Source: Engraulis encrasicolus (taxonomy: Eukaryota; Chordata; Actinopteri; Clupeiformes; Engraulidae). Taken from it: 64,000 nt of DNA. Made by a program: the position numbers and the translations under genes. A model generated the notes under the pieces. That model saw only the letters and a program-made list of their open reading frames with translations. It ran no database searches and was not told where the DNA came from. The DNA lies in contig NC_085880.1 of NCBI RefSeq assembly GCF_034702125.1, forward strand, positions 19,095,528 through 19,159,527. Reading direction: 5' to 3'. Below are positions 48,401 to 54,400 of the stretch, one piece after another (position 1 is the stretch's first letter; the number at the start of each line of letters is the position of its first letter).

Positions 48401-51400
48401 TCCTTGTTTTACAAGAGGAAGGTAAAACTCAATTATTTAACTCAAGGGGAGGTGTAATATGAACCTTTCTGGTTCAGTCAGTCAGCTTTTATTGTCAGTG
48501 TCTTTATATGCACAGGTCATACAAGGAAATTGAAATTACGTTTTCTCTCTATACCATGAATCGACGTAGACATACACAGGACTGATTTTACAGTCTGACA
48601 TCAAAGTGCAAGACAGGACAAGTAACAGTGATGGTCCAATACCAGTAAAGTGATGAAGTAATGAATAATACTGAGCATTTAACATTTGTGAGTGACAGTG
48701 ATGGACCAGTGATAACCAGTAGCAATACGTGATAGAGTAATACATAACAATTTAACAGTGGTTGGCCTGAAAACAGTAGAAGTGATGTTCTGGCCCTATA
48801 TCATCTCTCTCCCACTCATTTTGTGTCCTACTGCTTACTGTTTCTGTCATAGTAGACACTAACCAAGAAAATAAACAGAAAATAACCAAGACTAATTAAA
48901 CTCTGAACAAGTCAGTTCCTCAAATCTGCAATTTCAAGTATTGACTAATTTGAGGTTTTGGTCAACCCTCCTGATTCGGAGTCTTCTGAGAGGGGTTCCC
49001 TGTGATTCTTTTGGTTTTCCTAAATACCTTCGAAATGACCAAGCATGTAAAAAGGGGTTAACACAGCTATTTAGCATTGTCAGAGTTTTTGCAATGCCAC
49101 CACCTGAGTCCCAAATGCCTTTCAGTCTTTGTGATTCCAACGGGTTGCTTGATCTCAGAGCAATTCTAAGAACGCTCACAAGGTTCATCACATGAAAAGG
49201 GATCCACAGTACCAGAAAAGTGAAGAGGATGGTCATCACTAACTTGGCCAGTCTAGGGTTGTTGAAGAGGGGCGTCTGCTTCAGCTTCTTGTGGAGGCAG
49301 AAGTAGAACATCGCCATGGTGGAGAAGGGAAGGACAAACCCCAGCAGTGTCTCACACAGAAGTATTCCCATCTTTTCCATTTCATTCTCTCCATGATGGG
49401 TCTGTCTACAGACTTTATTTTGCCCTTCTGAAAGGTCCGCTTTTACCACAGACGGGCTGGAGAGGATCACAGCCAGTGTCCAGAGGCAGACGAGCAGAAG
49501 CTTTTCTCCTCTGCCGCCCAGCTTGGCCCACTGGCTCCGATGCAGAACAACCATGTATCTGTGAACGCTCATCAGAGTCACAGTCAGCACGCTGGCGTAG
49601 GAACTGGTGGAGAAGAGCAGGAAGTGGACCTTGCAGAGGGAACGCCCCAATGCCCAGACAAAGTTCAAGTTGTATACCCACAGCAGTGTAGCAACCAAAC
49701 GCAACATGTCTGACGCAGCAAGATTCACCAAGAGATGAAGGGTGAAATTATCCTTCTTGAGATGGCGAAGGAGGAACACCACAACTGCAACGTTAGCAGG
49801 GACACCCAGAAGGAAACAAAACACTTGCACCCCAGTGCTGACCTGATGCTTCAGGGGGATGCTAGAGCTGTTTGTGCTGGGGTGGTTTAGAAGCTCCATA
49901 TTCTCACACAGGCACAGGCACTTAATAACACGGCACTTTATAACACCTGTGGGTGGGCTGCAATACACGTCATTGCATCGTAACATCCTGTTTCTGTTGC
50001 TATCACATCCATGTTCTGGCATCTTCTAGGACGCATGTGTTTGTCTGCACGGATGTGGCCCTGTCTCACACCATCTTATCTGCTCTCCATTTCTATGGTG
50101 TGTAAGCAACATTGACGCAAAACTGTGGTGAGATGTGGGTAGGGGTTAGTGCTTTCTGTAAGCCAGGGGTGGGGAAACTTTTTCATTCGAGGGGCCACTT
50201 CAAATTCATCCGAGGGCCGTAAAAGTCCTCCAGGGGCCATACTATGAACACAAACCAGGATTTTCCCCTTCACTTTAGGCCTATATTGAAGCCAGCCACC
50301 TTTTAAACAAACACCACCTTCTCTAGGTTCCCTGAATTTAACTCAATTGTATTGCAAATGCATTTTCTAAGATTCCTTTTCAAAATATGTCATATTTCAT
50401 GTGAAGCTGAATAAGATTAAAATTATACCGGGGGCCGGATAAAACGGCCTCAAGGGCTGCAAACGGCCCTCGAGACAAAGGTTCCCCACCCCTGCTGTAA
50501 GCTTTCCTGGTGAACCAGTAGCCTGTAAGTAACAAAAGTTTGTGTAGCCCAGCCCCCGCCCTGGGCGTCAACACATAGCTTCTGGTTCACCAGGAAAGCT
50601 GTAAGCTGTAATTCAGTAATTAGAGTGACATTTCAGGGATTTTTTTCAGCATTTTTCAGGGGTCGGGGGGCGGGGTTAATAAATAACAAAGATGTTTCCA
50701 TGGTATACACCCTTGAGTGTCCAAAATAACTAATTGCCGGGCTTAATCTTAAATTACTTTAAAAATATTTGAATGAAAATGTATAATGTGGAAAATCATG
50801 GGTTTTCAACCCTTTTTGCCATATTATAATAACTACTGTGAATAAATATTTGAAGACTACTGTATATGAAGTCAATATGAAGACTGAATCTGACATGTGG
50901 AAAATAGAACAGCATAAAAGCGTAAAAAAAACAGTAATATAAGTAGAAAAGGACGTTATTTGTAGAGGATACTGTTGTAATAATACAACCTTCCTAATCA
51001 CCACCAACTCCCCCCCCCCCCCCCCTTCCCTTCGCAGGTTCCCCAAGCGTCTCCATAAGGTGGTGCGGCGGCTGGTCCCCGACTGCCACGTGCGCTTCAT
51101 GCTGTCGGAGAGCGGCAGCAGCAAGGGAGCCGCCATGGTAACAGCGGTGGCCCAGCGTCTGATGTCACAGCGGCAGGAGATCGACGACACCCTAGCCCTC
51201 TTCAGGCTGGAGCCCCAGCAGCTGGAGCAGGTTTATTATTATTATTATTATCATTATTATTATGATTATTATTATCATTATTATTATTATTATTATTATT
51301 ATTATTATTATTATTATTATTATTATTATTATTATTATTATTATGATTAATGTTATTATTATCATTATTAATATTATCATTATTATTATTATCATTATTA

Positions 51401-54400
51401 ATATTATTGTTATTATCACATTGGGATAGATGTCTCTTTTTCACGAGGGCCCTGGCCAAGGCACACATTACATTACATCAGACATCTACTGAAAAGAACA
51501 GACAAAATTCAAATGAGTATAGAAATAAAGCAAAAAATAAAAAGTAGGCTACAACAATTGAAAGTGAAAACTTAAAACAAGGTTAGAAGTTAAAAACAAG
51601 TGCAAACACGTTTTGAATGTGTTATTGAGGTAAGATTTGATCTGGCAGGTGCGGGACCGCATGCGTGTGGAGCTGGAGAGGGGACTGAGGAGGGATGACC
51701 ACAACACAGCCTGCGTCAAGATGCTGCCCTCCTACGTCTACCGCACACCCGACGGCTCAGGTGACACATCATGGATGCCTACTGTACTTAACCAGAGACT
51801 GTCTGTATATAAGGAGACGGAACACTTCAGACAGCGTCCATAGGAATGAACAGGGGCAGTTTGTTATGCCTATATGGCGCATGCTTGTACCTGGCCGGCA
51901 ACAAGAGCCAATTGCTTGCTGAGCTGCGCTGTCATTTATCCAATCACCTCGCTGCCTTTACTCACCTGGTCTGACTAATCAGTGTTGCCAGATTTGACTG
52001 ATCAAAACCTGCCGAAAAGGTTATCAAAAACCGCCAAAATGCGCTAAATTCCGCCCAATTTCAACAAATTGCATTGGTTTCTACGGGCACAAAACTGCTT
52101 TAAAAAATGCCAAATGGCCAATTTTTCCCGTTTCTACCCACACACAGCCATCCCAAGTAGCCCAATTGGGTGGGCAACCGCCCAATCTGGCAACACAGTA
52201 ACTAATCTGGAATTGCGACCCAAATTGCGACCCTGAGGCGTAGCCAAGATGGCCGCAGAGTGAAAGGACTTATTCTTTTTTTTATGCATTTTATTTTCAA
52301 AGATTTTCAAACTGTAAGCACTACAGACAGAAAAGACAACACTAACACACATACACATACAAAAAGCAAACAAACAAAAACAAAATTCTACTGCCAGTCC
52401 ATAAAAGATTGTGATATGCCATGAAAGGACTTATTCAAAATGACTTTGACTTAACCCCGTAAGGCAGAGCTGATGTTATAACCTTATTGTCACCAAAATT
52501 GTAATGTACGTATAATCTGTTACTTCAGGCTCTCTGTCCTGTCATAGCAGTGTTGTTATGATGTAGAGTCTTTTCAGCAAGAATGAGCAGACCTGCAGGT
52601 GAGCCGTCCTGCACAAAGAGGCTACTGTGTTAAAATACGGCCCCAGTTATACATTTGTTTTCACCAGAAAGGCAATGATCAAGTTGTAATGTACTACTCT
52701 ACTACTATACAATAGTATGTATGTATTGTTGCGTTAAGGTGTTGAGAACAAAACGTCAGTTCTTGAAATTAGAAGAATAGTGTAACACACAGACACACAG
52801 ACACAGACTACACACTGATAGTTCCCATCAGGATCTCTAATGAAGGTTGCCCTCTGCTCTGTTCCCCTGCGTGTTTTAGAGACGGGTAAGTACCTGGCCC
52901 TGGACCTGGGGGGAACTAACTTCCGTGTGTTGGTGGTGAAGATCCGGACGGGGATGAGCAAAGCAGTGCGCATGTACAACAAGATCTACGCCATCCCTCA
53001 GGAGATCATGCAGGGCACTGGAGAGGAGGTGAGGCCTGGGGGGATGGATGCCAACATAGGCATGGCTTGATACAGTGATACAGTGAAATATATACACATA
53101 GGCATGGCTTGATGCAGTGAAATATGATGTCTGGATGGATACCAACATAGGCATGGCTTGATACAGTGATACAGTGAAATATATACTGCACACATAGGTA
53201 TGGCTTGATGCAGTGAAATATGATGTCTGGATGGATACCAACATAGGCATGGCTTTATACATTGATACACTGAAATATATACACATAGGCATGGCCGCCC
53301 TGATGCAGTGAAATATGGTGGGTGGATGGATACCAACATAGGCATGGCTTTATACAGTTATACAGTGAAATATGGTGGGTGGATGGATACCAACATACAG
53401 TAGGCATGTGAAGATACAGTGAAATATGGTGAGTGGATGCATACCAACATAGGCATGTGTTGATACAGTGAAATATGGTGAGTAGATGCATACCAACATA
53501 GGCATGGCTTTTATTGTATTTGATACAATCTGAAATATAGATGTACATTAGGAGGTGATGCCTGGATAGACAGGAAATAGAAAGGGCATCTATTGTCAGA
53601 TACAAGAAGAAGATTCAAGCTACAAACGTATGTTTCACACTCAGTGGGTTCCACCTGTGTTTGTGTCTCTCCTCCAGTTGTTTGACCACATAGTGCAGTG
53701 CATCTCCGACTTCCTGGACTACATGGGAATGAAGAACACACGACTCCCTCTAGGCTTCACATTCTCCTTCCCCTGCCGCCAAGCTGGCATTGACAAGGTA
53801 AAGTCGGAAAAAGAAAGTCCAATGTTTTTCAATGCCAAATTATTCAGGGTGCCTTTTCTGTGGTTCTCATTCTGTAGGCCTTCTTGTGCAGTTTTAAAAG
53901 TCTTGGTTAATTTTCTAAATTATTTTTAGGCGTTTTGTCAACTCTAAGAGATTCAATCTCTCTCTCTCTCTTCTAAATCAGGAGTATAATTATAGCAGTG
54001 TGTATATTTAGTCTCCACTTCTTCTCATTGTGCTGTTGTTCCCAGGGGACCCTGGTGAGCTGGACCAAGGGCTTCAAAGCCACAAACTGCGAAGGAAATG
54101 ATGTCGTCGACATGTTGAGGGAAGCCATCAAGAGGAGAAATGTGAGTCTCTCACTTCACATAATGGTATTATTTACTGTATATCATTGGTGTCAATCCTA
54201 GGTGCAGAAGGTAAAAACCCCAGATAACATTTCCTTCTTCCATCACTGAGTAGCTAATCTACCTGTCTTGAGTGATTGAGCAGGTGTTTGTGATTCGCAC
54301 TTCAGGTACTAATAGAATGCATTTAATCTACTTCAAGGGCTTAATGAGACATGGGACTTGATTTTTGCACAATTTGAAACTTGAACCTGAACCTGAACAG

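What the first reader, a model, noticed from the sequence alone, without database searches (positions are those of the whole stretch)
51227..51650. Probable recent intron gain splitting hkdc1 exon 10
In tandem hexokinases the two halves have matching exons. Here the pairs are 149/149, 120/120, 96/96, 100/100, 184/184, 156/156 and 234/237 nt. The only unmatched intron is the 418-bp one at 51231-51648. It divides what would be a single 305-nt exon (193+112), the size I recall for the central exon of vertebrate hexokinase genes. The hexamer GCAGGT lies across both junctions, exactly as expected if an insertion made a 6-bp target duplication that supplied both the acceptor AG and the donor GT. Read-through hits stop codons, so it must be spliced for a full-length enzyme. 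The donor GTTTAT is weak and passes straight into (TTA)n.
Basis: partly seen in the sequence, partly recalled or inferred. Interest (0 to 1): 0.85.

Follow-up and report, generated by a model that had tools for sequence, protein, structure and literature searches.

The report
Retrotransposon-born intron in anchovy hkdc1
In the European anchovy one exon of a hexokinase-like gene is split by an extra intron that turns out to be a backwards fragment of a mobile element; how new introns arise in vertebrates is rarely this legible, but the insertion looks old rather than recent.

Summary
The window is Engraulis encrasicolus: the spliced protein is 100% identical, over 92% of its length, to RefSeq HKDC1 isoform X2. 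hkdc1 exon 10 is split 193+112 nt by a 418-nt GT-AG insert, 51231-51648. Two paralogues in the same genome (hk1-like, hk2-like) keep one 305-nt exon there. The insert is a 5'-truncated, antisense copy of the 3' end of a dispersed LINE-like element: body 51415-51643, (TTA)n tail 51233-51416, bounded by the 6-bp repeat GCAGGT. The repeat supplies both GT and AG, so splicing rebuilds the original exon. Body, tail and repeat account for the insert but for one base, so a LINE landing in an older intron is unlikely. RefSeq splices it; no RNA was seen. 'Recent' is not supported: the copy is second most diverged of 17 aligned copies (K2P 0.325; ten copies 0.04-0.11), though subfamily structure clouds its age. 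Its presence in other fish could not be tested. Transposon-born introns in fish are published (notothenioid slc26a2): a new member of a known kind.

The parts
51038..51230 (+). hkdc1 exon 10a (193 nt), encodes ...RLEPQQLEQ
   Evidence: AG/GT borders and frame; matches RefSeq HKDC1 [Engraulis encrasicolus] P0008
51227..51232 (.). left copy of 6-bp direct repeat GCAGGT (putative target-site duplication; gives the donor GT)
51231..51648 (+). 418-nt extra phase-0 intron in hkdc1 exon 10
   Evidence: hk1-like and hk2-like exons uninterrupted here
51233..51416 (-). (TTA)n = (TAA)n 3' tail of the antisense element
   Evidence: TRF period 3, 61.3 copies, 86% matches; a (TAA)n tail also ends family copy L013
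51415..51643 (-). 5'-truncated 3' end of a LINE-like element (ORF C-terminus plus 3' UTR), antisense to hkdc1
   Evidence: 72% identity over 237 aligned columns to the consensus of six copies, E 1.4e-31; 32 other loci cover at least 190 of 229 positions at 68-72% (40 of 153 candidates scored)
51645..51650 (.). right copy of GCAGGT (gives the acceptor AG)
51649..51760 (+). hkdc1 exon 10b (112 nt), begins VRDRMRVELERG
39415..58972 (+). hkdc1 coding region from start to stop codon, 19 coding exons here (18 as the usual vertebrate number is recalled), 916 codons intact

Best explanation
A 5'-truncated LINE-like retrotransposon copy, about 230 nt of its 3' end plus a TAA-repeat tail, inserted antisense into hkdc1 exon 10 at a proto-splice site (GCAG|GT) in an ancestor of the European anchovy. 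Duplication of the 6-bp target left GCAGGT at both ends. The left copy became a donor (GCAG|GT) and the right copy an acceptor (GCAG|GT), so the spliceosome removes the element and one target copy and restores the 305-nt exon without changing the protein. Shown: insert content, boundaries, repeat, frame, the uninterrupted exon in two paralogues, and a RefSeq protein that joins the two exon halves. Inferred: target-primed insertion, efficient splicing in vivo, and an age of tens of millions of years.
For: Insert content: (dispersed family; the six copies fetched first share a 3' end, start at several 5' points and have variable A/T-rich tails, as LINEs do). Nearly complete accounting: repeat, one base, body, tail, repeat. 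Longest flush repeat of 18 introns in the gene. Ancestral uninterrupted state: hk1-like and hk2-like loci of the same genome; the paralogous codon in the N half lies inside exon 2 (41814-41976). The joined protein aligns to PDB hexokinase-1 and -2 chains without a gap at the junction. RefSeq protein joins QLEQ|VRDRM. hkdc1 does not look decayed: 916 intact codons, and its Engraulis:Coilia unique-residue counts 42:16 run the same way as those of neighbour supv3l1, 26:12.
Against: Both splice sites are poor: by a profile of the gene's own sites the donor is second weakest of 18 and the acceptor fourth weakest of 18, with the lowest pyrimidine share (44%) of 18. No RNA read or transcript contig over the junction was seen; the protein-fragment search listed none from anchovy in its best 120 of 4855. 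The (TAA)n tail stands in place of about 23 terminal bases present in the other copies of the first alignment. A test of 3 of the 6 first copies for flush repeats of 7 bp or more found 0 of 3, so the family's duplication habit is not established. The LINE assignment rests on a 3' end; no reverse transcriptase of this family was reached.
Confidence: 0.82

Rival explanations
1. An older intron already lay at this codon, and a LINE later filled or replaced it.
For: The LINE copy is diverged (K2P 0.325), and introns readily collect LINE copies (general knowledge).
Against: Nothing but repeat, one base, LINE body and tail lies between the exons; a pre-existing intron would leave sequence of its own. 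The hk1-like and hk2-like loci have no intron here.
Confidence: 0.07
2. The insertion is not (or hardly) spliced: a disrupted or hypomorphic hkdc1 allele for which annotation pipelines force an intron from protein homology.
For: Weak donor and acceptor; in-frame stop after 39 codons; RefSeq can place an intron from protein alignment alone (recalled); no RNA seen.
Against: The element is diverged while all 916 codons stay open; the excess of Engraulis changes is also seen in supv3l1; the name 'isoform X2' implies several isoforms, which usually reflects transcript data (recalled).
Confidence: 0.08
3. Filler DNA captured during double-strand-break repair, with 6-bp microhomology rather than a target-site duplication, happened to carry a LINE fragment.
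For: Three measured family copies show no flush repeat of 7 bp or more; about 23 terminal bases of the element are missing.
Against: Truncation at the LINE 5' side, a simple-repeat 3' tail, and direct repeats at both ends fit retrotransposition better.
Confidence: 0.07
4. Very recent insertion, confined to this species or individual.
For: A long (TTA)n array and a perfect 6-bp repeat; short pieces of the body match other loci at 84-86%, so a closer source subfamily may exist.
Against: K2P 0.325 to the family consensus against 0.04-0.11 for ten copies, nearest fetched copy 0.269; no match over at least 190 of 229 positions above 72% among 40 of 153 candidates scored. The array can expand at any time, and the repeat is held by coding and splicing.
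Confidence: 0.08

Closest known systems
Transposon-born introns of notothenioid slc26a2 (PMC12357937; abstract and passages seen)
   Same: Teleost, new intron in a coding exon, intron made of dispersed repeat, gt-ag lying within the repeats at the insert ends.
   Different: There a putative element with terminal inverted repeats and 4-nt direct repeats; here a 5'-truncated LINE-like 3' end in antisense with a 6-bp repeat that alone supplies both dinucleotides.
Introners (PMC9860276; passages seen)
   Same: Mobile element inserts into an exon and is spliced out, often with target-site duplications.
   Different: Introners are families that make many introns; among animals and land plants the paper reports them in only two groups, both animals, and no pattern of gain in vertebrates. 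Here one intron is known and the family looks like an ordinary dispersed repeat.
Intron insertions in melanocortin and other receptors of ray-finned fishes (PMC3151243; passages seen)
   Same: Gain at a proto-splice site (MAG|R) in a teleost coding exon; a table row seen lists RTE non-LTR matches in a novel intron.
   Different: Those gains are put at about 320-190 million years there, and birth by one element was not shown in the passages seen.

Membership tests
Transposable-element-born spliceosomal intron | Intron absent from the ancestral exon | tested here: met
   hk1-like and hk2-like loci in the same genome have one 305-nt exon. Orthologous hkdc1 DNA of other fish not reached.
Transposable-element-born spliceosomal intron | Intron body is a dispersed repeat, end to end | tested here: met
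   one base (51644) between body and right repeat is unassigned
Transposable-element-born spliceosomal intron | Flanking direct repeat at the insert ends | tested here: met
   GCAGGT, 6 bp; the 17 other introns have 0-4 bp
Transposable-element-born spliceosomal intron | Spliced in vivo | tested here: inconclusive
   RefSeq protein spans the junction; no RNA seen
Recent intron gain | Element close to its family consensus | tested here: not met
   K2P 0.325, second highest of 17 copies; the consensus is dominated by ten young copies, so a separate older subfamily is possible
Recent intron gain | Absent from close relatives' hkdc1 | not testable with these tools
   only proteins of Coilia, Alosa, Denticeps and others were available
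Introner family | Same element makes introns in several genes | not tested
LINE (non-LTR retrotransposon) | Common 3' end, variable 5' truncation, simple-repeat or A-rich tail | tested here: met
   on six copies
LINE (non-LTR retrotransposon) | Reverse transcriptase and endonuclease in full-length copies | not tested
   the search with the ORF C-terminus did not complete; the 53-aa C-terminus has no Pfam match above cut-off

The most novel reading that the evidence does not exclude
Antisense tails of this LINE family have made introns more than once in anchovy genes, that is, an ordinary LINE acts as an introner in a vertebrate because its insertions can fall on AG|GT proto-splice sites that the duplication then doubles.
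Probability: 0.06. Interest if true: 0.85.

Novelty: new member of a known kind. Interest (0 to 1): 0.5.

Why it matters
Vertebrate intron gains are rare and their source is usually erased. Here donor, acceptor, element and the unsplit exon of paralogues can all still be read, and the outcome (two splice sites from one duplicated AG|GT) is the textbook prediction. The dating also cautions that a legible intron birth need not be recent. Because the anchovy genome is rich in repeats, a survey for further cases is feasible.

Tried and rejected
Other copies of the insert in the window: only simple-repeat matches. Scans of viral contigs (2) and of bacterial/archaeal genome contigs (1) for the element's 3' motif: 0 matches in 3 scans. 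Twenty arbitrary 10-kb genome stretches: no copy, but 72,112 of 200,000 bases read N. A cryptic acceptor ending at 51447 with a better pyrimidine tract was dropped: the 201 nt it would keep run into a TGA at the 15th codon, read by eye. More unique residues in Engraulis than in Coilia HKDC1 (42:16) looked like relaxed constraint, but neighbour supv3l1 leans the same way (26:12); I ran no test of the difference. Alignment of (TTA)n loci L002-L008 to the element consensus gave only weak matches that I take for low complexity. Paper searches listed no paper on an intron gain in hkdc1 or on a LINE-born coding-exon intron in a vertebrate: 2 of 2 listed; 15 of 190; 9 of 9; 20 of 522; 8 of 26; 8 of 7,443; 12 of 118; 8 of 199; listings only, most subscription journals not held.
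Full report
Species and gene. The protein spliced from 19 exons (39415-58972) has 916 intact codons. Over 92% of its length it is 100% identical to RefSeq 'hexokinase HKDC1 isoform X2 [Engraulis encrasicolus]' (P0008); P0008 differs only in a shorter N-terminus. Next relatives include Coilia grayii (92%) and Alosa pseudoharengus (90%). Neighbouring supv3l1 and frames resembling vps26a and srgn (recognised by eye) give the order expected around HKDC1 (recalled). 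The window lies in a 1.43-Gb assembly at C24:19095528-19159527; the published anchovy assembly is 1.4 Gb (PMC13403563, listing and passages).

The observation. All stated exon lengths, borders and the 6-bp repeat were verified. The extra intron is phase 0, between Gln and Val codons (CAG|GTG), in a stretch that aligns without a gap at the junction to PDB hexokinase-1 and -2 chains. A protein search of the whole genome with the joined exon scored 24 of 24 candidates and gave 17 matches: the two halves of hkdc1 exon 10; two loci that match residues 2-101 as one block without a stop (C24:19190416-19190715, about 44 kb downstream, and C1:36188056-36188355); and 13 partial matches, as expected from exon 2 and last-exon homologues. 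I call the two whole matches hk1-like and hk2-like from position and sequence; no tree was made. Both have an exon of exactly 305 nt with AG and GT borders. The 193+112 arrangement is therefore the derived one relative to these paralogues. No second hkdc1 copy or unsplit haplotig appears among the matches.

What the insert is. Its non-repetitive part matches dispersed sequences. Of 153 candidates 40 were scored, giving 42 matches: itself, 32 that cover at least 190 of 229 positions at 68-72% identity, and 9 partial ones at 74-86%. Six copies fetched with flanks and aligned in the reverse orientation share a 3' end reading ...CCTTGGCCAGGGCTCACTTGAAAAAGAGA...CCCTGGTTAAATAAAGG (consensus) followed by A/T-rich tails; they begin at several points; one (L013) ends in a TAA repeat like the insert. 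Upstream lies an open frame ending ...WNEIQKSLKLAVFMSVVEFKSYLNDTFKSVCTCF*, which I take to be the C-terminus of a LINE ORF2 of the L2 type; that clade name is from recall, and Pfam gave nothing above cut-off for it. The hkdc1 insert is thus a copy cut off at its 5' side, lying antisense to the gene, with its tail toward the donor. It lacks about 23 terminal bases that the others have before the tail.

How it makes an intron. Read along the gene: GCAG|GT, tail, element body in reverse, one base, GCAG|GT. The left repeat gives the donor, the right one the acceptor, and removal of everything between restores GCAGGT once. Both sites are weak compared with the rest of the gene: donor second lowest of 18, acceptor fourth lowest of 18 by profile and lowest of 18 in pyrimidine share (44%). 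Retention would add 39 codons and a stop. RefSeq reads the joined form; whether RNA underlies that model was not visible. A fragment search in the protein collection showed no anchovy product among its best 120 of 4855.

Age. Sixteen other copies, chosen from the matches and not at random, were fetched. Distance to a leave-one-out consensus is 0.04-0.11 for ten of them, 0.198-0.262 for five (L011, L039, L040, L041, L048), 0.485 for one short copy (L042), and 0.325 for the insert. The nearest single copy (L040) is 0.269 away. Read as neutral decay this means an insertion of 0.13 (half the distance to L040) to 0.33 substitutions per site; with an assumed 2.5-4e-9 per site per year (recalled, not measured here) about 30-130 million years. 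Hence the intron is probably shared by several anchovies. The caveat is subfamily structure: the consensus is dominated by ten similar copies, the insert shares some bases with L012, L039 and L041, short pieces match other loci at 84-86%, and 113 of 153 candidates were not scored, so a closer source may exist.

Is the gene healthy? Engraulis has more unique residues than Coilia in HKDC1 (42 against 16, outgroup Alosa; 36 against 17, outgroup Denticeps), which might suggest relaxed constraint after the insertion. The neighbour supv3l1, assembled by hand from the window with residues next to gaps masked, gives 26 against 12 (Alosa), 24 against 13 (Sardina) and 20 against 14 (Denticeps). The lean is in the same direction, somewhat smaller; no test of the difference was made. 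I read it as mainly lineage-wide, not special to hkdc1.

Place in the literature. Transposon-born introns with gt-ag in the insert-end repeats are reported for notothenioid slc26a2 (PMC12357937, abstract and passages); intron gains at proto-splice sites in fish receptors in PMC3151243 (passages); introners in PMC9860276 (passages), which reports no pattern of gain in vertebrates; 342 gains in human genes in PMC12124190 (abstract and passages), which explored intronization. The present case adds a LINE-like element, in antisense, with both splice dinucleotides from the duplicated target. I file it as a new member of a known kind.

Noticed in passing
48937-49899 (minus strand): An intact intronless rhodopsin-type receptor frame (321 aa from its first suitable Met; PF00001 E 8.5e-41) lies antisense inside the 3.6-kb hkdc1 intron 9; best PDB sequence match is atypical chemokine receptor 3 at E 7e-26, so its subfamily is unclear.
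   Followed up: partly
33270-33340 and 33395-33465: A 71-bp perfect tandem duplication copies the 3' end of a supv3l1 exon together with its donor and the (GT)n beyond it.
   Followed up: partly
56875-56945 and 57021-57091: A 71-bp, 94% identical duplication copies the end of hkdc1 exon 16 with its donor into the next intron.
   Followed up: partly
45316-45350 and 45376-45410: A 35-bp perfect duplication copies the acceptor and first bases of hkdc1 exon 7; with the two above, three tandem duplications in the window double a splice site.
   Followed up: partly
585-2120 (minus strand): A long reverse-transcriptase frame (RVT_1 E 2.1e-30) of another LINE; the insert's element consensus has no match there.
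   Followed up: partly
57705-57941: Exon 17 is 237 rather than 234 nt because of one extra Asp codon (LGLDDSTC) not seen in 7 aligned orthologues from other species.
   Followed up: yes
hkdc1 and supv3l1 coding regions: Engraulis proteins carry about twice as many unique residues as Coilia in both genes (42:16 and 26:12 with Alosa as outgroup), which hints at a faster lineage.
   Followed up: partly
61891-62146 and 62343-62597; 5995-6213 and 7227-7445: Two further near-identical repeats (97.7% direct, 98.2% inverted), probably young mobile or segmental copies.
   Followed up: no
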